Below, in pieces: positions 1 through 35,198 of a stretch of DNA of 41,701 nucleotides (positions within the stretch are counted from its first letter, which is position 1; every line of letters begins with the position of its first letter). The notes under the pieces are model-generated. The model ran no database searches. It was not told where the DNA came from and worked only from the letters and a program-made list of their open reading frames with translations. This DNA is from Nanobdellota archaeon. GTDB taxonomy: Archaea > Nanobdellota > Nanobdellia > Parvarchaeales > Parvarchaeaceae. The stretch covers positions 1-41,701 of the forward strand of contig JAKBJF010000006.1 in NCBI GenBank assembly GCA_021836125.1, in the 5' to 3' direction. Both the position numbers and the translations under genes were made by a program.

Positions 1-1382
1 TAATAATGCTGCGGAAACCATCAGATGTATACAAAAGTACTACGGATTTAAGAAATTATTTCGCTAAGGACGCTTCTATATATTTCGTTTCAGAAGCGCT
101 TCAAAAATTCGTTGAAACTGACAGCAAATCTGATTTACTATTGGAACTAAAAATCCTAGATGTCCCGAAACGCATAAAATCGGGGGAAAGGTTGTCGGAC
201 GAAGAAAAGAAAAGCTTAAGGGAAAAAATTCCCGGCGGTTCTGGTTATAGCTATGATGTAGAAGAATTAGATTATGAATATGCAGGGTTAAAGTCGTTCT
301 TGTCTAGCATAGACGCAAATAAGTCATTTATGCTATGGAGATTACTTCTTAAAAGTATCGCCAACAAAACGGAATCCGACGCGAAAGATTTCTTCTCCGG
401 CAGTTATTCTTGGTTTTATTATAACGTTCACAAAACGCAATTCTATGCAAGTTTTGTAAAACTTCTTAGAAATGAAAGATGGCTTGCGAATAAAGATGGT
501 AATTTAAAGAGACCGGCCGACATGGCCTTTGAAGACTTATCGGATGAATACATTAAGGACGGAAATAATATGAGGATATTGTTTGAGGTTCTCGGCATAT
601 CAATGGCAAAAAATGACATAATCGAACAGTTACCTCAAGAAGAAAGAAAAAAACTTGAACTTACGGAAGGATACAGCAGTGCGCAACTTAGCGAAATATT
701 AAAAAACGCGGAGACTCTGACTAATCAAAATGAAATTAAGAATGAAAATGTAGAAACTTGGGCACCTAAAAACGCCCCCAACGAAATAAAAACTCCAATT
801 GAAATTATTGACCCAATCAAAATAAAACCTCCTGAGTTAGAGGGCCAAAGCAGCACATTAAATATAACGCCTGCTGAAGCACAAAGTAAAGAGGAAAATA
901 AAAGCGCAGAAGGGGAGCCCGGAATTTTAAATCTGACTGACAAGAAGGACATCGGAGATTGGGGAGAAAAGAAAGTCTATGAGGCCCTTAAAGAGAAATA
1001 CAAAGAGTCTGGCAGCATTAAAGAAACTGATTTTGGTTTTAGAGTTAGTGATGGCGTGGAGGTTGTTTGGCTAAATAAAAATGGAAACGTTGGAAAAGGT
1101 TGCGATTTTATAATAAAAAAAGGCGAAATAGAACTTGAGTACATTGAAGTAAAAACAACTAAGAGCGACGAACAAGAATTAATAGAAATTACTGGTGTTC
1201 AATGGGAGTTTGCTAGAAAGCTTTATGATAATAAAAAAGGTGAAAAATATTCTGTTTATGTTGTTACAAAAGCTGGTGAACTGGATGCTAGAATTATAAA
1301 GCTACAAAACCCGATTAGGCTTTGGCATGAAGGTAAACTTTATGCGCATCCAATAAATTTCAAGCTCCCCCCTCTTGTGTAA
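1..1382 (+). CDS. NOV_C/DUF3883 domain protein, 5'-partial (sacsin/NO VEIN-like)
   Basis: The visible part is at least 458 residues and the reading frame is open to the window edge, so the ATG at 6 may be internal. The C-terminal 150 residues look like the NOV_C (DUF3883) domain: a WGEKKVYEALKE helix near residue 316, GCDFII with Asp367, and IEVKTT with Glu381 and Lys383. This is a D...ExK arrangement typical of PD-(D/E)XK nuclease folds. The middle segment (RNERWLANKDG, then ILFEVLGI) resembles the region before this domain in large sacsin/NO VEIN-type GHKL ATPases, so an ATPase N-terminus is probably upstream. Residues 240-310 are a polar, Asn/Glu/Pro-rich linker. It lies directly upstream of vsr-dcm and a GHKL-nuclease gene, which points to a role in defence or modification. 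The domain call is fairly secure; the function is inferred. Confidence 0.75.
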   Translation, partial: IMLRKPSDVYKSTTDLRNYFAKDASIYFVSEALQKFVETDSKSDLLLELKILDVPKRIKSGERLSDEEKKSLREKIPGGSGYSYDVEELDYEYAGLKSFLSSIDANKSFMLWRLLLKSIANKTESDAKDFFSGSYSWFYYNVHKTQFYASFVKLLRNERWLANKDGNLKRPADMAFEDLSDEYIKDGNNMRILFEVLGISMAKNDIIEQLPQEERKKLELTEGYSSAQLSEILKNAETLTNQNEIKNENVETWAPKNAPNEIKTPIEIIDPIKIKPPELEGQSSTLNITPAEAQSKEENKSAEGEPGILNLTDKKDIGDWGEKKVYEALKEKYKESGSIKETDFGFRVSDGVEVVWLNKNGNVGKGCDFIIKKGEIELEYIEVKTTKSDEQELIEITGVQWEFARKLYDNKKGEKYSVYVVTKAGELDARIIKLQNPIRLWHEGKLYAHPINFKLPPLV

Positions 1383-1396
1383 ACAAATATATAAAC

Positions 1397-1412
1397 GTGC
1401 CTAGAAAGGCAC
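1397..1412 (+). terminator. 6-bp perfect stem-loop after the DUF3883 gene
   Basis: GTGCCT and AGGCAC form a perfect 6-bp stem with an AGAA loop, 14 bases after the stop codon at 1382 and before the vsr promoter region. No long T tract follows. It could be a transcript 3' end or processing structure; the terminator role is a guess. Confidence 0.35.
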
Positions 1413-1469
1413 TAAAGCCAGTTACCCATGCAAGGAAACTTATTTAACGTCCCCACCACTTAATTAAGT

Positions 1470-1901
1470 ATGACAGCAATAAAGTTCAGAGCTCCAACAA
1501 AATCGGTCTCTTTAAGAATGAGGCAAGTTAAAAGCAGTGGGACGAGCATAGAAAAACGAGCAGAACAGTTAATAAAGGAATTGGATTTAGACTACGAATT
1601 TCAGCCAAAATTATATGGCCATCCAGATTTTAGAATAGTTGGCACTAAAATATTGATATTTTGTGACGGTTCTTTTTGGCATGGCAGGAATAAATCCGAT
1701 TTAAATGGCGAATCGTTTGGCAGAAACGCAAAATTCTGGAAAGAGAAAATAAATTACAATTTAAAACGCGACTCAAAAATAAACCGCACGTTAAAAAAAG
1801 AGGGCTGGATCATTCTTAGATTCTGGGACACTGAAATAAACAAAAAACAAGAATACGTAAAATCAAAAATTATTGAAGAGGTTTTAGATGCAAGAAAATA
1901 G
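1470..1901 (+). CDS. vsr: Vsr-like very short patch repair endonuclease
   Basis: The 143-residue protein has the layout of Vsr family nucleases, which nick 5' of T:G mismatches produced by deamination of 5-methylcytosine. Visible features are an N-terminal RMRQVKSSGTSIEKRA segment, GHPDF with the likely catalytic Asp53, FCDGSFWHG (residues 64-72) matching the family FWHG motif, FWKEKI..N..RD (89-101), and GWIILRFWDTEI (112-123). Length is normal for Vsr. Its last 14 bases overlap the start of the cytosine methyltransferase gene, so the two are probably translationally coupled. This is the classic Vsr-Dcm partnership. An AT-rich box (cttatttaac) about 25 bp upstream suggests a promoter and leaderless start at 1470. 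In defence islands a Vsr homologue can also serve as the restriction nuclease, so repair versus restriction is open. Confidence 0.88.
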   Translation: MTAIKFRAPTKSVSLRMRQVKSSGTSIEKRAEQLIKELDLDYEFQPKLYGHPDFRIVGTKILIFCDGSFWHGRNKSDLNGESFGRNAKFWKEKINYNLKRDSKINRTLKKEGWIILRFWDTEINKKQEYVKSKIIEEVLDARK

Positions 1902-2973
1902 TGAGTTAACTGCTATAGACCTGTTTTCTGGAGCAGGAGGTCTTACTTTGGGTCTAAAAATGGCTGGTTTTAAAGTCGTCGCTGCGATTGAAGTAGAACC
2001 AAAAATAGCAAAAACTTATGCAAGTAATCATCCAGAGGCGGCTTTGTTAATTGAGGACATAAGAAAAGTAACCGCAAAGGAAATTTACAAAAAGACAGGC
2101 GTAAAGTCTATAGATTTAATAGCAGGATGTCCGCCTTGCCAAGGATTCTCTAAATTAACCGAAAAATACCATAGACAAGACGAGAGAAACGGTTTAGTTA
2201 TGGAAATGGGTAGACTGATAAAAGAGATACTGCCAAAAGCGATAATGATGGAAAACGTGCCGGGCTTGGCTAAACAAGATAATCCAATCTTCAATGAATT
2301 TCTGAATCTTATTCAAGCTATCGGATATAAAGTCAATTATTCAGTCCTCCAGCTCGCCGATTTCGGGATACCGCAGTCTAGAAGACGCTTGGTTCTGCTC
2401 GCGGGGCGACATTTTGAGATTAAACTCCCGAAAAGAGAGTACTCCCAAAAAGGCGACAAAAAGAAAGGCCTTAAACCGTGGCTTACCCTTAAAGATGCAT
2501 TGTCAGGATTTGATTCTAAGGATACACGAACTTTTGAAGAGACATTACCTTATGGTGGCCCCGCGAAATTTGATTGGAAGGTGGTTAGTAACATTAGTAA
2601 AATAAGTAGAAAACGCTTGGCCACTCTTAAGTCCGGACAAACATGCAGAGATCTGCCATTAAAATTACAGTTAGAATGCCAATCTCAGCCAAATGGTTTC
2701 AAAAACGTTTACGGAAAACTTAGTTGGAATAAGACGCCGCCAACCATAACGAGTGGCTTCAAAACGCCGTCCATGGGCAGATTCGGGCATCCTTCTAAAA
2801 CAAGAACAATTTCAGTTAGAGAGGCGGCACTTATACAAACGTTTCCAAAAGATTACAGATTCGAAACTACCTCCATAGGCACGGTGGCCGAAATGATTGG
2901 GAATGCACTGCCACCAAAATTCGCGAAAATCGTTAGTAAAACCTGTTTTGAAGCATTATTAAGCAAATCTTAA
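1888..2973 (+). CDS. dcm: DNA (cytosine-5-)-methyltransferase
   Basis: This 361-residue enzyme transfers a methyl group from S-adenosylmethionine to C5 of cytosine in a specific DNA sequence. Canonical motifs are in order: motif I DLFSGAGGLT (11-20), motif IV GCPPCQGF with catalytic Cys84, motif VI MENVPGL (Glu122), motif VIII QSRRR (163-167), a target-recognition region around 175-300, and motif X GNALPP near residue 340. It overlaps vsr by 14 bases and precedes the GHKL-nuclease gene. Together they look like a restriction-modification cassette in which this enzyme marks self DNA. The recognition sequence cannot be read from the protein. Motifs are intact, so it is probably active. Confidence 0.95.
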   Translation: MQENSELTAIDLFSGAGGLTLGLKMAGFKVVAAIEVEPKIAKTYASNHPEAALLIEDIRKVTAKEIYKKTGVKSIDLIAGCPPCQGFSKLTEKYHRQDERNGLVMEMGRLIKEILPKAIMMENVPGLAKQDNPIFNEFLNLIQAIGYKVNYSVLQLADFGIPQSRRRLVLLAGRHFEIKLPKREYSQKGDKKKGLKPWLTLKDALSGFDSKDTRTFEETLPYGGPAKFDWKVVSNISKISRKRLATLKSGQTCRDLPLKLQLECQSQPNGFKNVYGKLSWNKTPPTITSGFKTPSMGRFGHPSKTRTISVREAALIQTFPKDYRFETTSIGTVAEMIGNALPPKFAKIVSKTCFEALLSKS

Positions 2974-2986
2974 AAGATATATATTA
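2974..2986 (+). promoter_or_regulatory. Box A-like promoter for the GHKL-nuclease gene
   Basis: The AT-only stretch agatatata starts right after the dcm stop codon and is centred about 28 bp before the ATG at 3007. This is the spacing expected for an archaeal TATA box serving a leaderless mRNA. It suggests the effector gene can be transcribed separately from the methyltransferase. Confidence 0.45.
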
Positions 2987-3006
2987 GTGCATAATAAGTT
3001 GAGCCT

Positions 3007-5001
3007 ATGACCGACAACAAAAAATATACAATGATAGTAGATAAGATGATCGTAAATAAACTAGGATTTAAGTTATACGATAAAGTTTCTGCCGTAGTCT
3101 CAGAACTAATAGCAAATGCTTACGATGCAGATGCAGAACTCGTTACGATAAATTTACCAATTGGCAAGGTTCTAGGCTCTAACGATATTATAGAAGTTAT
3201 AGACGATGGCGTAGGCATGACTCCAGACGAGATAAATAATTTTTATTTGCCGGTTGGAGCAGAAAGGAGGCTAGATAAAAATCGCGGAGACCTTTCAATT
3301 GAAAAAAACAGACCAGTCATGGGCCGTAAAGGAATAGGAAAGCTGTCAGCGTTTGGCGTTTGTAAAACAATCGAAATAAAATCTTCCGGCGGGGAGAAAA
3401 CTAGCAAAGGTTACAGAGTTGCTCATCTAAAAATAGAGTATGATGAAATAATTGGAGATAAGAATAAGAATTTAGATTATCATCCAACTGTTCTTAGAGA
3501 TGATGAAACTTGGGCAGAAAGAAGAGGAACTACGATAACATTGAAAGACTTTCTTAAGAAAAGAGTACCAGACGCAGAAACTTTGGAAAGGCAACTAGCA
3601 TCTAGATTTTCGATTATACTGAATAAAGGGGATAAATTTGACGTAAAGGTTGTTGATACAAAGGAAATTCCAGAAGAAGAGTTCTACGTTAAAAACATAA
3701 AAATTGATGTGATGGACGGAACAAAGATAAGCGTTGACGATAGACCAATTAAACTGGAAAATGGAGAGGAACTAAAAGTTAATGGGTGGGCTGCCATGGC
3801 AAAAAGCCCGCACAAAAATCCAGAGACCGCGGGTGTAAGAATATATGTTAGAGGCAAGTTTGCTGCTACAACCAGAGATTTTAATCAACCTGCTGGATTC
3901 CAAGGAGAATTCGTTGCGAGATCTTATTTAGTTGGAGAAATACATGCGGATTGGTTAGATAAAACGGAAGATCTAATACAAACACATAGACAAGATATAA
4001 TCTGGGAATCTGAATACGGAGAGGCTTTTGCGGCTTGGGGCAGGGAATTAATAAAAGAAGTGGCAAAACGAGGGCGAGAACCGAGAAGAGAAAGAGTTCG
4101 GGATGCATTTTTAGCAGCGGCACAATTAGAAAAACGCGCGAGTGTTCGTTTCAATAACTCTGATTTAGAGAAAGAAGCAATAGAGGTCGGCAAACAACTT
4201 AGTGGCTTTGCATCAGAGGACGAGTTAGAAGACGAGGAATATGTAAAAGGTCTTTCAGAAATAATACTTATGCTTACTCCACATAAACTTCTATTTGATG
4301 CATTTAACAAGATAAAAGACATGGTAAAATCCGGGAGCATAAACTCGGCCGAACTAATAAAGTTATTCGAAACAACAAGAATTGCCCAATTAGCTTCATA
4401 TGGACAGATTGTAGAAGAAAAATTAAGTGCAATGGATACGTTCAAGGCGGCAATAAGAAATGATCAAACGACAGAACTAGAGCTTCAAACTATTCTAGAA
4501 TCGGCACCTTGGCTTATAAAACATGATTGGACAGTAATTACAATGAATCGGGCGTTGTCAACGTTTCAAGGCGCCTTTTCTTCATGGTACAAAAAGAATA
4601 CTGAAGAGGACATAATCTTTTTGACCGATGCCACCTCTTTAAATAAGCGACCAGACTTTATTTTCCTTCACGAAGACAATTCTTTAATAATAGTTGAAAT
4701 AAAGCCCCCGAAACGGGTTTTTGATGATTCAGATTGGAGCAGATTAGAAAAATATCATGATTATATAGAAAAGTTCTTTAAAGTGAATTCAAACTTTTTA
4801 AAGGATTTTCCGAATGGGTTTAAAACCATATTAATAAGAGATAATGAAAAAGTAAGCTCAACAGTAGAGAAGGCAATGAAGAATTTAAAAGAGCATAACA
4901 AGCTAGAAACATATACTTGGGAAGAGTTACTAAGAGAAACGGAAATAGCACATAAAGATTTTCTTCGCGCAAGAGATGAAATGGGATCTAAAACTAAATG
5001 A
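3007..5001 (+). CDS. GHKL (MORC/Hsp90-like) ATPase fused to Shedu-like PD-(D/E)XK nuclease
   Basis: The 664-residue protein has two recognisable parts. The N-terminus is a GHKL ATPase: the Mg-binding Asn box SELIANAYDAD (Asn37), the DDGVGM motif (66-71), and the glycine lid GRKGIGKL (106-113), as in MORC, MutL and Hsp90. Residues 120-340 fit the associated transducer-like region. Residues 380-480 are helical and charged. The C-terminus from about 480 (ESAPWLIK) resembles the Shedu/DUF4263 nuclease fold, with RPDF (Asp550), IVEIKPP (Glu564, Lys566) and a downstream WSRLEKYHDYIEKF helix. The likely role is an ATP-gated DNA-cleaving effector in a restriction system guarded by the upstream cytosine methyltransferase. 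GHKL ATPases of this kind near DNA methylases are known. The nuclease assignment rests on motifs only. Confidence 0.85.
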   Translation: MTDNKKYTMIVDKMIVNKLGFKLYDKVSAVVSELIANAYDADAELVTINLPIGKVLGSNDIIEVIDDGVGMTPDEINNFYLPVGAERRLDKNRGDLSIEKNRPVMGRKGIGKLSAFGVCKTIEIKSSGGEKTSKGYRVAHLKIEYDEIIGDKNKNLDYHPTVLRDDETWAERRGTTITLKDFLKKRVPDAETLERQLASRFSIILNKGDKFDVKVVDTKEIPEEEFYVKNIKIDVMDGTKISVDDRPIKLENGEELKVNGWAAMAKSPHKNPETAGVRIYVRGKFAATTRDFNQPAGFQGEFVARSYLVGEIHADWLDKTEDLIQTHRQDIIWESEYGEAFAAWGRELIKEVAKRGREPRRERVRDAFLAAAQLEKRASVRFNNSDLEKEAIEVGKQLSGFASEDELEDEEYVKGLSEIILMLTPHKLLFDAFNKIKDMVKSGSINSAELIKLFETTRIAQLASYGQIVEEKLSAMDTFKAAIRNDQTTELELQTILESAPWLIKHDWTVITMNRALSTFQGAFSSWYKKNTEEDIIFLTDATSLNKRPDFIFLHEDNSLIIVEIKPPKRVFDDSDWSRLEKYHDYIEKFFKVNSNFLKDFPNGFKTILIRDNEKVSSTVEKAMKNLKEHNKLETYTWEELLRETEIAHKDFLRARDEMGSKTK

Positions 5002-5175: not shown

Positions 5176-5565
5176 TTATAAGGGTCTTTTGTATACTCCC
5201 CTCTTTTTAACGTTTTGTTCCCTTGCGCTCACGACATTATAGCTACCGTCGTCCTTTCTTGATACGATTAAGTGTATATCGTGTCTCGCGTCTTTTTTGA
5301 ATAATATCATATATTTGAGACCCAGCCCGCTTCTTATCTCATCTCTCTCAGAGCGGTCTTCTATCGCGATTATTCCCTCTAATCCACCGTTTAGTACGCG
5401 TATTATGTCGTTTCTGTCAAGATTTCTTTCTTTTTCTCTGACTTTATAGTGTGCGCTGTAGCTTATACATCGTTGTGAAAACTCCTGAGAACAAGATATT
5501 TCCTGCTGTTTGCGGCTGCGATTTGTCTCCCAAAAGAAGATTATAACCTCTCTTGTCCATGCCAC
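5176..5565 (-). CDS. DUF4258-like small protein
   Basis: Residues 35-120 match the pattern of DUF4258 and related RelE-like small proteins: YSAHYKVREKERNLDRNDIIRVL near the start, then a beta-rich segment (KYMILFKK, DIHLIVSR, YNVVSA). Such proteins often occur next to mobile or defence genes, and some are toxin-like, but no activity is established for this one. The first 30 residues are unlike the family, and an AT-rich box lies only about 12 bp before the start. The true start may therefore be further in, or the 5' end may be altered. No antitoxin partner is visible. It faces the defence island from the other strand. Confidence 0.55.
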   Translation of the reverse strand: MAWTREVIIFFWETNRSRKQQEISCSQEFSQRCISYSAHYKVREKERNLDRNDIIRVLNGGLEGIIAIEDRSERDEIRSGLGLKYMILFKKDARHDIHLIVSRKDDGSYNVVSAREQNVKKRGVYKRPL

Positions 5566-27107: not shown

Positions 27108-29948
27108 ATGCCAAGAAAAGAAGCTGATGAGAAGATTTCCGAATTCTGGAAAAGGAACAAAATATTCGAGAAATCGATTGAAAGTAAGCCCGCAGATAAA
27201 GTTTACATATTCTATGATGGTCCGCCTTTCGCTACTGGTACGCCACACTATGGTCACTTACTGGGACTTACTAGCAAGGATCTTTTCCCAAGGTTCTGGA
27301 CTATGAAAGGATACAGAGTTGAAAGACGTTGGGGGTGGGATTGCCATGGATTACCGATAGAAAACATAGTCGAAAAAAGCCTTAGCATAAAGAACAAGAA
27401 AAAAATAGAAGAGATGGGCGTACAGAATTTTAACCAAGCCTGCCGATCAAAGGTGCTGTACTTTGCACATGAATGGAAGAAAACCGTCGAAAAACTTGGT
27501 AAGTGGATAGAATTCGACAACGCGTACAAAACTATGGACACCGAATACATGGAGTCTGTATGGTATATCTTCAAAAGATTGTACGACGAAAAGTTAGTGT
27601 ATGAAGATAAAAAGATACTCATGTACTGTCCAAGATGCCAGACTCCTCTTGCAAAAGCTGAGACAGCTATGGACAACAGCTATAAAGAGGTCACGGAAAG
27701 AACGGCAGTAGCTAAATTCAAGTTAAAAGGCGATAGTGAAACTTACCTTCTGGCATGGACCACTACGCCGTGGACACTCATAGGTAATGTTGCACTAGCA
27801 GTAAATCCAAACATGAAATATGTCAAACTACAAGTCGGTAAAGAGAAGCTTATACTCGCAAAAGCGAGACTCTCCGAAGTAAATGCGGAGCATAGCGTTA
27901 TATCAGAATTCGATGGCCGTGACCTGCTGGGTAAAGAATACTATCCATTATACGATTTAGCCAAGAAAGACGAGAAAGCTTATGTAGTAATCGACGGCGG
28001 AGAAGGCGTTTCATCTGAAGAAGGTACTGGGATAGTGCATCTTGCGCTCTATGGTGAGTTCGACTATGATATGATAAAAAGATATGGGCTGGCGTTGGTG
28101 CAGCACATTGGCAGTGACGGTGAACTTAAGCGCGGCCCAAAGGAATGGTTGGGTATGTGGTTCAAGGACGTCGATAAGCTCGTCATAGACGACCTAAGCA
28201 AAAGAAGCTTGTTGTTCAAAGCAGATAATTATTCGCACTCCTATCCTTTTTGTTACCGCTGTGAAACTCCTTTGTTCTACCATGCTGTCGATTCTTGGTT
28301 CATAAATATACAAAAAATAAAGGACAAGGCACTTAAAAGGAACGAAGACATAAACTGGTATCCCGCGCACTTAAAGGAAGGTGCTTTCAAGCATAATATT
28401 GAAACTGCACCCGACTGGACAATTTCCAGGAATCGATTCTGGGCCACTGCTATGCCGGTTTGGAAATGCACTTCATGCAATGAGATGAAGATAATCGGTA
28501 GTATAAACGAACTAAAAGAGAACGCAGTTGAAAAAATAACTGACAACGTAGATCTTCATAAGGATTATATGGATGGCATACACGTTAAGTGCGGAAAATG
28601 TAAAGGAGTCATGAACCGTATACCCGAAGTTTTCGATTGCTGGCTTGAATCCGCAAGCATGCCATACGCTTCTAAACATTATCCTTTCGAGCACAACACT
28701 GACTTTGACAGGATATTCCCTGCCGACTTTGTATCAGAGTATATCGGACAAATAAGGACGTGGTTCTATTATATGCACGTTATAGGAGTTCTATTATTTG
28801 ATAGCCCTCCCTTCAAGAACGTAGTCGTCACCGGAATCGTATTGGCCGAAGACGGGGCTAAGATGTCGAAATCCAAGCACAATTTCCCCGATCCAGATAT
28901 AATCCTAGATAAGTATGGCGCGGATGCATTAAGATTCTATTTTATGGAATCACCACTAATGCTCGCCAGAGATCTTAATTTCAGCGAAAAGAACCTTAAG
29001 GTGACATACCAAAAGATCGTTGACAGGCTGTCTAATGTGGAAAATTTTTACAGAATATTCGCAGCAGGAAGAGCTAAATCTGCCAATGGTACTTCGAAAA
29101 ACATACTTGATATGTGGATAACAAACCGGCTTAATTCATTCATAAAAAATTCTACAGAATACTTAGATAAATATGATACAGACGCATACTGCGGTGAAAT
29201 AGCAAAAATAATAGAGGATTTGTCCGTATGGTACGTAAGGGAAAGCCGCGACCGTTTCAGAAGCGATGATGAAAACGTGAAAGATGCCGCCGTTTTAACA
29301 CTGCGAAAAGCGTTATTGGTAATTTCAAAGGTAAGTGCGCCGCTCATGCCCTTTGTATCTGAAGAGGTATATCAGATGCTGAAAAACGACGAAAAAAACC
29401 TGTGTGAATCCGTGCATTTGGATTCGTGGCCGTCGGAGCAAAAAGCGGAAATCGACGAGAAATTAGAAACTGACATGGCCTATGTGCGAGACATCGTAAG
29501 CCGCGGAAGGGAATTTAGGGATTCGAATAAATTACCGGTAAGGCAGCCTTTAAAGAAAGTAGTGGTGAGGGGCAGGGAGATTGATGAAAAATATACCGAA
29601 CTCATAAAGGCAGCTCTAAACGTAAAGGGCGTAGAAATTGTGCCGTCTGATAAAATGGAAGTTTCTATCGACAAAGAAATAACGAAAGAGTTATTGATGG
29701 AAGGGATTGCAAGGGAATTCATACGAAACATAAACGACTACAGAAAAGAACTAAAGATGACTATATCGGAGAAGGTTGTTATGGACGTAAATACCAGTAG
29801 TCACGACTTGATGGCAGGAATAAAAATGTTCGAAGGCACTATAAAGAAAAGCACTCAAACTGAAGAAATAGTTTTTAGTACAAATAAAACTGGCAAAGAC
29901 GTGGAAATCGGCGAATACAAAGCGGTTGTATCTCTTAAAAAGACCTGA
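27108..29948 (+). CDS. ileS: Isoleucyl-tRNA synthetase
   Basis: The 946-residue class I synthetase charges tRNA-Ile. It shows FYDGPPFATGTPHYGH with the HIGH-equivalent HYGH (47-50), the WGWDCHGLPIE segment, an editing (CP1) domain with TTTPWTLIGNVALAV, and KMSKS at about 585-589 (GAKMSKSKHN). A Cys-rich part, CTSCNEMK plus CGKC, is a zinc-binding insert. CWLES, SEYIGQIRTWFYY and the helical anticodon-binding domain follow. Length is usual for archaeal or eukaryote-like IleS. A box A (tttaaaaga) lies about 37 bp upstream. The 209-bp intergenic region before it shows no recognisable gene. Confidence 0.97.
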   Translation: MPRKEADEKISEFWKRNKIFEKSIESKPADKVYIFYDGPPFATGTPHYGHLLGLTSKDLFPRFWTMKGYRVERRWGWDCHGLPIENIVEKSLSIKNKKKIEEMGVQNFNQACRSKVLYFAHEWKKTVEKLGKWIEFDNAYKTMDTEYMESVWYIFKRLYDEKLVYEDKKILMYCPRCQTPLAKAETAMDNSYKEVTERTAVAKFKLKGDSETYLLAWTTTPWTLIGNVALAVNPNMKYVKLQVGKEKLILAKARLSEVNAEHSVISEFDGRDLLGKEYYPLYDLAKKDEKAYVVIDGGEGVSSEEGTGIVHLALYGEFDYDMIKRYGLALVQHIGSDGELKRGPKEWLGMWFKDVDKLVIDDLSKRSLLFKADNYSHSYPFCYRCETPLFYHAVDSWFINIQKIKDKALKRNEDINWYPAHLKEGAFKHNIETAPDWTISRNRFWATAMPVWKCTSCNEMKIIGSINELKENAVEKITDNVDLHKDYMDGIHVKCGKCKGVMNRIPEVFDCWLESASMPYASKHYPFEHNTDFDRIFPADFVSEYIGQIRTWFYYMHVIGVLLFDSPPFKNVVVTGIVLAEDGAKMSKSKHNFPDPDIILDKYGADALRFYFMESPLMLARDLNFSEKNLKVTYQKIVDRLSNVENFYRIFAAGRAKSANGTSKNILDMWITNRLNSFIKNSTEYLDKYDTDAYCGEIAKIIEDLSVWYVRESRDRFRSDDENVKDAAVLTLRKALLVISKVSAPLMPFVSEEVYQMLKNDEKNLCESVHLDSWPSEQKAEIDEKLETDMAYVRDIVSRGREFRDSNKLPVRQPLKKVVVRGREIDEKYTELIKAALNVKGVEIVPSDKMEVSIDKEITKELLMEGIAREFIRNINDYRKELKMTISEKVVMDVNTSSHDLMAGIKMFEGTIKKSTQTEEIVFSTNKTGKDVEIGEYKAVVSLKKT

Positions 29949-35127: not shown

Positions 35128-35198
35128 TGGGCACTGGGGGATTTGCACCCCCGTAGTCCGAGCTTCAGTCGGAGACTCTCCTGTTAAGCTAAGCGCCC
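35128..35198 (-). tRNA. tRNA-Phe (GAA)
   Basis: It folds as a full cloverleaf: acceptor GGGCGCT/AGTGCCC (one G-T pair), D-stem GCTT/GAGT with a loop containing GG, anticodon stem TCCGA/TCGGA with loop CTGAAGC (anticodon GAA, Phe), a 4-base variable loop, and T-stem GGGGG/CCCCC. No intron; discriminator A; CCA is not encoded. The T-loop reads TGCAAAT, so position 55 is G where T (pseudouridine) is expected, which is unusual. A box A lies upstream at 35224-35235. Confidence 0.93.

What the first reader, a model, noticed from the sequence alone, without database searches (positions are those of the whole stretch)
1..5001. Restriction-type island: DUF3883 protein, Vsr, Dcm and a GHKL-Shedu effector
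Four adjacent plus-strand genes carry a NOV_C nuclease-like domain, a Vsr-like nuclease, an intact C5-cytosine methyltransferase and a GHKL ATPase with its own nuclease-like domain. No classical restriction enzyme is present. GHKL/MORC-like ATPases near DNA methylases are known (established). That these four form one system, with cytosine methylation as self-mark and ATP-driven cleavage, is inference. It does not fit DISARM or BREX, whose core genes are absent.
Basis: partly seen in the sequence, partly recalled or inferred. Interest (0 to 1): 0.75.

Follow-up and report, generated by a model that had tools for sequence, protein, structure and literature searches.

The report
Archaeal restriction-modification cassette with ATPase nuclease
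Three of the four genes form a restriction-modification system in an archaeal genome, in which one enzyme marks the cell's own DNA with methyl groups and an ATPase-nuclease probably cuts unmarked DNA; the fourth gene is the broken-off end of a neighbouring, separate defence gene, so the find is a new member of a known kind.

Summary
All four domains are present, but two points of the reading change. (1) The "DUF3883 gene" (3-1382) is only the C-terminal part of a gene cut by the contig edge. Its front half ends contig C14, which overlaps window 5-68 exactly (64 bp). The joined protein (1055 aa) is a sacsin/Hsp90-type, Tiamat (TmtA)-like defence protein. It lies beside none of the 79 homologous nuclease loci examined, so it is most likely a separate neighbour. 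(2) A restriction enzyme is present. The GHKL protein aligns over its full length with the NCBIfam BbrUII/HgiDII restriction-enzyme model, at 269 bits against a cut-off of 550, so it is a sister clade. Its architecture is paraMORC3 (GHKL + S5 + E-D-ExK nuclease), recently also called Shedu type I-D. In 79 homologous genome loci, 48 have a 5mC methyltransferase within 1.5 kb and 22 also a Vsr. The order Vsr-MTase-GHKL recurs in a candidate division LCP-89 bacterium at about 50% identity. Best reading: a type II-like restriction-modification system with a repair Vsr, beside a Tiamat-like gene. Less expected: MTase and Vsr travel together but have been exchanged relative to the nuclease (AU tests), so the source of its specificity is open.

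The parts
1..1382 (+). C-terminal ~458 residues (NOV_C/DUF3883) of a Tiamat/TmtA-like, sacsin-type Hsp90 ATPase protein cut by the contig edge; N-terminal half is on contig C14 (L010:3641-5491). Probably a separate defence gene, not part of the restriction-modification system
   Evidence: Pfam NOV_C E 1.3e-12; PADLOC TmtA E 3.7e-28; N-half TmtA E 4.9e-70 and SACS domain E 6e-16; 64-bp exact overlap and chimeric 21-nt tail
1470..1901 (+). Vsr-like endonuclease (143 aa), zinc ligands of E. coli Vsr replaced; probable T:G mismatch repair nuclease of the system
   Evidence: Pfam Vsr 2.5e-12; PDB 1cw0 E 1.2e-12 with alignment; 50% identical to Vsr of L031 and L039; tree clade 100/99
1888..2973 (+). 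C5-cytosine DNA methyltransferase (361 aa), all catalytic motifs present; overlaps vsr by 14 bp; probable self-marking enzyme
   Evidence: Pfam DNA_methylase 3e-68; PADLOC MTase_II 1.9e-92; motif alignment
3007..5001 (+). paraMORC3-type GHKL/S5 ATPase with C-terminal PD-(D/E)XK nuclease (664 aa); probable restriction enzyme, sister clade of BbrUII/HgiDII
   Evidence: NF050001 E 9.4e-80, 268.9 bits (cut-off 550) over 7-661; invariant ATPase and nuclease residues; AlphaFold2 model pLDDT 86.4, ATPase half similar to Hsp90, MORC3 and SMCHD1
1434..1469 (+). possible archaeal promoter (AACTTATTTAAC, about 30 nt before the vsr start), suggesting vsr-MTase-GHKL is transcribed apart from gene 1
   Evidence: read by eye; inference only, no statistic computed

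Best explanation
Vsr (1470-1901), 5mC MTase (1888-2973) and GHKL-nuclease (3007-5001) are one type II-like restriction-modification system. The MTase methylates a cytosine in an unknown recognition site on host DNA. The GHKL protein is the restriction enzyme: it probably dimerises through its ATPase domains when it binds ATP, clamps DNA, and cuts unmethylated foreign DNA with its C-terminal PD-(D/E)XK domain. Vsr repairs the T:G mismatches that arise when the 5mC marks deaminate. The gene at the window's left edge is the tail of a separate Tiamat/TmtA-like (sacsin-Hsp90 ATPase + DUF3883) defence gene that shares the island. Shown: gene content, intact motifs, recurrence of the three-gene unit, the cut gene. 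Inferred: site, methylation-gated cleavage, ATP role, Vsr repair role.
For: Full-length match of the GHKL protein to the BbrUII/HgiDII restriction-enzyme family. Full catalytic sets of both enzyme halves conserved in 39-40 of 40 relatives. MTase within 1.5 kb in 48 of 79 loci and Vsr as well in 22; density near versus far in the same loci 19-fold (MTase) and 20-fold (Vsr). Exact order Vsr-MTase-GHKL in L031, with 50/52/51% identity. MTase + GHKL pairs on Halobaculum, Haloplanus, Rhizobium and Pantoea plasmids. Literature: paraMORC3 with an E-D-ExK nuclease, and MORC/paraMORC neighbourhoods with cytosine methylases and Vsr (PMC2292703); M.HgiDII methylates GTCGAC (PMC5867850); VcSduA, a GHKL+DUF4263 protein, stops phage and needs both its ATPase glutamate and nuclease lysine (PMC12137116). 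NOV/TmtA absent from all flanks.
Against: The window protein is below the curated BbrUII/HgiDII cut-off. About 30 of 79 loci, mainly Nocardia, carry the GHKL gene with no MTase nearby, so it can exist without one. No avoidance of GTCGAC or a clear 6-bp site in the bin. The nuclease fold search gave no match with E below 0.001. The bin is 66% complete and the contig could not be checked against the same-species genome, which lacks the region.
Confidence: 0.75

Rival explanations
1. The GHKL-nuclease is a stand-alone Shedu type I-D effector like VcSduA that senses a phage feature, and is not gated by methylation; the MTase and the Vsr-like nuclease form a separate small modification/repair or R-M pair next to it.
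For: VcSduA has the same domain plan and works alone; Nocardia and a few other relatives lack an MTase; MTase+Vsr have been exchanged relative to the GHKL gene; SduA_C profile in 14 of 45 relatives.
Against: 48 of 79 relatives keep an MTase within 1.5 kb, often overlapping by 3-4 bp, with 19-fold enrichment over the same loci's far flanks; NCBI files the nearest characterised relatives as restriction enzymes.
Confidence: 0.13
2. All four genes are one composite system, with the DUF3883/Hsp90 protein as an extra sensor or nuclease subunit.
For: All four lie on the same strand within 5 kb; a helicase fused to DUF3883 occurs in some R-M operons (PMC3710099).
Against: TmtA-like gene in none of 79 homologous loci; its relatives have other neighbours; 87-bp gap with a possible own promoter before vsr.
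Confidence: 0.06
3. The Vsr-like protein is the actual restriction (nicking) enzyme of the MTase, and the GHKL protein is an accessory clamp.
For: All four zinc ligands of E. coli Vsr are replaced in window, L031 and L039, so its role may differ; MTase and Vsr share one tree history.
Against: Many systems have GHKL+MTase and no Vsr (26 of 79); the GHKL proteins carry a conserved nuclease centre of their own.
Confidence: 0.05

Closest known systems
BbrUII/HgiDII family restriction enzymes with their 5mC methyltransferases (NCBIfam NF050001)
   Same: Same full-length architecture of the nuclease and the same pairing with a C5 methyltransferase
   Different: Window protein 268.9 bits against a cut-off of 550, while plasmid relatives L011, L013, L014 and L016 score 767-831; separate tree clade; its MTase does not group with the MTases of those systems; specificity unknown
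paraMORC3 GHKL ATPases of restriction-modification neighbourhoods (Iyer, Abhiman and Aravind 2008)
   Same: GHKL + S5 + C-terminal RE-fold nuclease with E-D-ExK; contexts with cytosine methylase and Vsr
   Different: Nothing essential; an archaeal example in a clade with its own relatives
VcSduA, Shedu type I-D (Vibrio cholerae, 2025)
   Same: GHKL ATPase plus PD-(D/E)XK nuclease with the same two catalytic centres
   Different: VcSduA is described as acting alone; here an MTase and Vsr are linked, and the Shedu profile does not reach the window protein itself
Tiamat (TmtA)
   Same: Gene 1: sacsin-type ATPase N-terminal part and DUF3883 C-terminal part matching PADLOC TmtA at both ends
   Different: About 1055 aa against 1302 model positions; split over two contigs; part of the island, probably not of the R-M system. 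Reading TmtA as Tiamat is from my own knowledge of PADLOC naming
E. coli Vsr
   Same: Vsr fold family, next to a 5mC MTase
   Different: Aligned positions of the zinc ligands and of H64 are replaced

Membership tests
Type II restriction-modification system | MTase gene adjacent to a cognate endonuclease gene, recurring together | tested here: met
Type II restriction-modification system | intact catalytic motifs in both enzymes | tested here: met
   MTase motifs; E490-D550-E564xK566
Type II restriction-modification system | both enzymes act on the same site; cutting blocked by methylation | not testable with these tools
   needs biochemistry; no clear site avoidance in 693 kb
BbrUII/HgiDII family (NF050001) | score above curated cut-off 550 bits | tested here: not met
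   268.9 bits
BbrUII/HgiDII family (NF050001) | GTCGAC specificity | tested here: inconclusive
   MTase separate from the BbrUII-type partners' MTases; GTCGAC not avoided, 105 observed versus 110 expected
paraMORC3 | N-terminal GHKL with conserved ATP motifs, S5 domain, C-terminal RE-fold domain with E-D-ExK | tested here: met
   definition from PMC2292703
Shedu type I-D | C-terminal DUF4263/SduA_C domain | tested here: inconclusive
   14 of 45 relatives, window protein not; fold search found only weak nuclease-like hits, none of them Shedu
Vsr endonuclease | Vsr fold family | tested here: met
   Pfam 2.5e-12, 46.9 bits against cut-off 27; 1cw0; TIGR00632 87.5 bits, below its cut-off 97.85
Vsr endonuclease | zinc site and active-site histidine of E. 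coli Vsr | tested here: not met
   C66, H71, C73, C117 and H64 positions replaced in the alignments; which residues bind zinc is from my own knowledge
Tiamat (TmtA) | N- and C-terminal match to TmtA profile | tested here: met
DISARM / BREX | core genes (DrmA/B; BrxC, PglZ) | tested here: not met
   no such profile among the best PADLOC matches of the four proteins or the downstream gene (DrmMII hits are general 5mC MTase matches). The other genes of the window were not scanned against PADLOC

The most novel reading that the evidence does not exclude
GHKL-nucleases of this clade do not carry a fixed sequence specificity of their own: they work with whatever methyltransferase (and its Vsr) lies beside them, reading the partner's recognition or the methylation state. 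This would explain why the modification pair has been exchanged repeatedly against the nuclease (L039, L076, and the L035/L041/L026 group) and why some relatives have no methyltransferase nearby.
Probability: 0.13. Interest if true: 0.7.

Novelty: new member of a known kind. Interest (0 to 1): 0.38.

Why it matters
The locus gives an archaeal member of a little-studied class of ATPase-type restriction enzymes for which I found no full-length solved structure. It links two literatures: paraMORC3/BbrUII restriction enzymes and Shedu type I-D (VcSduA). The partner exchange between modification genes and nuclease makes a concrete question testable: is sequence specificity in the nuclease or taken from its partner? 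It also shows a contig-edge artefact that made a 1055-residue defence ATPase look like a small nuclease gene.

Tried and rejected
Four-gene system: rejected, TmtA absent from all homologous loci. HgiDII proper with GTCGAC: score below cut-off, no GTCGAC avoidance. Motif avoidance as a guide to the site: only 4-mers such as GATC (0.63) and GGCC (0.75) low, not specific. Integration at the tRNA beside the island (L010:2484-2557): no repeat of the tRNA end found at the other side; the longest match was no longer than in random pieces. Empty-site comparison in the genus: agmatinase and prs markers are 34-48% identical at best and lie on different contigs, so no usable site. Contig contamination: IleRS is 35-36% identical to the genus while genus members are 61-87% identical to each other, but tetranucleotide make-up fits the bin (r 0.991 with C22) and other contigs are about 99.6% identical to a same-species genome; transfer of IleRS is more likely, contamination not excluded. 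Chimera in L039 as the cause of the apparent partner exchange: its N run is 2 bases and the part beyond it is also closest to L029. Nuclease fold search against PDB: nothing below E 0.001. Papers on BbrUII (PMC3815753) and Shedu classes (PMC11805627) are not held.

Full report
Observation. The window is a complete contig (C29, 41701 bp) of an 800-kb, 66% complete bin. Other contigs of the bin carry archaeal-type V-ATPase subunit A, CDC48 and LonB, so the host is very probably an archaeon.

Gene 1 is a fragment. A search of the bin with the TmtA profile found the missing front half at the end of contig C14 (model positions 23-630). C14 5428-5491 is identical to window 5-68, and the last 21 bases of C14 are the reverse complement of window 665-685. 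So assembly broke at a chimeric end inside the gene, and that chimera itself ties the contigs together. The joined protein has 1055 residues, with a sacsin-type ATPase domain (SACS, E 6e-16) and NOV_C at the end. PADLOC calls both halves TmtA, which I take to be Tiamat.

The GHKL protein is the restriction enzyme. It matches NF050001 (BbrUII/HgiDII family restriction enzyme) over residues 7-661 with E 9.4e-80 but 268.9 bits against a cut-off of 550; plasmid relatives L011, L013, L014 and L016 score 767-831. In a 75-row tree it lies with L031 (99) inside a 28-row clade (100) apart from the BbrUII/HgiDII clade. In 40 aligned relatives the ATPase residues E33, N37, D66, G68, G70 and the lid, and the nuclease residues E490 and D550, are invariant; E564 and K566 are kept in 39. 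The AlphaFold2 model (pLDDT 86.4) resembles Hsp90, MORC3 and SMCHD1 ATPase modules. The C-terminal domain alone (pLDDT 90.6) has only weak nuclease-like fold matches. This is the paraMORC3 plan defined in 2008 (PMC2292703), and that of VcSduA, shown in 2025 to need both centres for phage defence (PMC12137116).

Recurrence. A scan of 84,980 species genomes gave 79 loci. A 5mC MTase lies within 1.5 kb in 48, and a Vsr as well in 22. The density of MTase and Vsr near the GHKL gene is 19- and 20-fold that in the far flanks of the same loci. L031 (candidate division LCP-89) has the same order Vsr-MTase-GHKL with 50, 52 and 51% identity. Pairs of MTase and GHKL also occur on archaeal and bacterial plasmids and beside the homologues in viral contigs. 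Nocardia loci lack an MTase, so the gene can exist without one. The NOV/TmtA gene was found in none of the flanks. Elsewhere it sits beside Qat or without R-M genes. In 371 genomes of the phylum sample, 3 have the TmtA gene and 7 the GHKL gene; only the window's own genome has both.

Partner exchange. Trees of MTase and Vsr both group window, L031 and L039 (100/98, 100/99), while the GHKL of L039 groups with L029 (96/95), whose MTase belongs to another class. AU tests reject window+L031+L039 for the GHKL (p 7.8e-6), L076+L055+L087 for the GHKL (p 3.2e-4), L039+L029 for the MTase (p 2.7e-46) and L041+L035+L026 for the MTase (p 1.2e-3). These groups were named after seeing the trees, which the test assumes against, so the p-values are somewhat generous. 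L039 is not a chimera. The MTase and Vsr thus move as one module relative to the nuclease. Either the nuclease is re-tuned at each exchange, or the two MTase classes share a site, or the nuclease's specificity does not lie wholly in itself.

Mechanism. Shown: gene content, motifs, recurrence, co-inheritance of MTase and Vsr. Inferred: the MTase marks host DNA at an unknown site; the GHKL dimer closes on DNA with ATP and cuts unmarked DNA; Vsr repairs deaminated 5mC. The Vsr of this trio has lost the positions of the E. coli zinc site, so its exact activity is open. No hint of the site came from word counts.

Verdict. An ordinary but well-supported new archaeal member of a known kind (a paraMORC3-type restriction-modification system) beside a separate Tiamat-like gene. 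The interest lies in the partner exchange and in the bridge to Shedu type I-D.

Noticed in passing
L010:5492-5512 and window 665-685: Last 21 bases of contig C14 are the reverse complement of window 665-685, an inverted chimeric end of the kind seen in amplified single-cell DNA
   Followed up: yes
window 27108-29945: IleRS is only 35-36% identical to the genus versions (61-87% among themselves) but 54-59% to other families of the class; likely horizontal transfer or, less likely, a binning error
   Followed up: partly
L010:2484-2557 and window 35128-35198: tRNA genes found by Rfam; ARAGORN listed none in the window. The first lies just before the island, but no matching repeat was found on the other side
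   Followed up: partly
L010:2726-3535: 269-aa protein with several HTH repeats weakly like transposase or Cbp1 HTH domains, directly before the TmtA-like gene
   Followed up: no
L019, L020, L022, L023, L024, L027, L090: Recurring arrangement with a second, convergent GHKL gene on the far side of the MTase (and Vsr where present), two GHKL proteins flanking one modification module
   Followed up: no
L012:6243-9263: Sulfuricurvum plasmid TmtA-like DUF3883 gene sits between a NERD-domain gene and a complete Qat system
   Followed up: no
bin G000 (693 kb read): GATC occurs at 0.63 and GGCC at 0.75 of expectation
   Followed up: no
window 5176-5565 (-): DUF4258 gene directly downstream of the cassette on the opposite strand
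   Followed up: no
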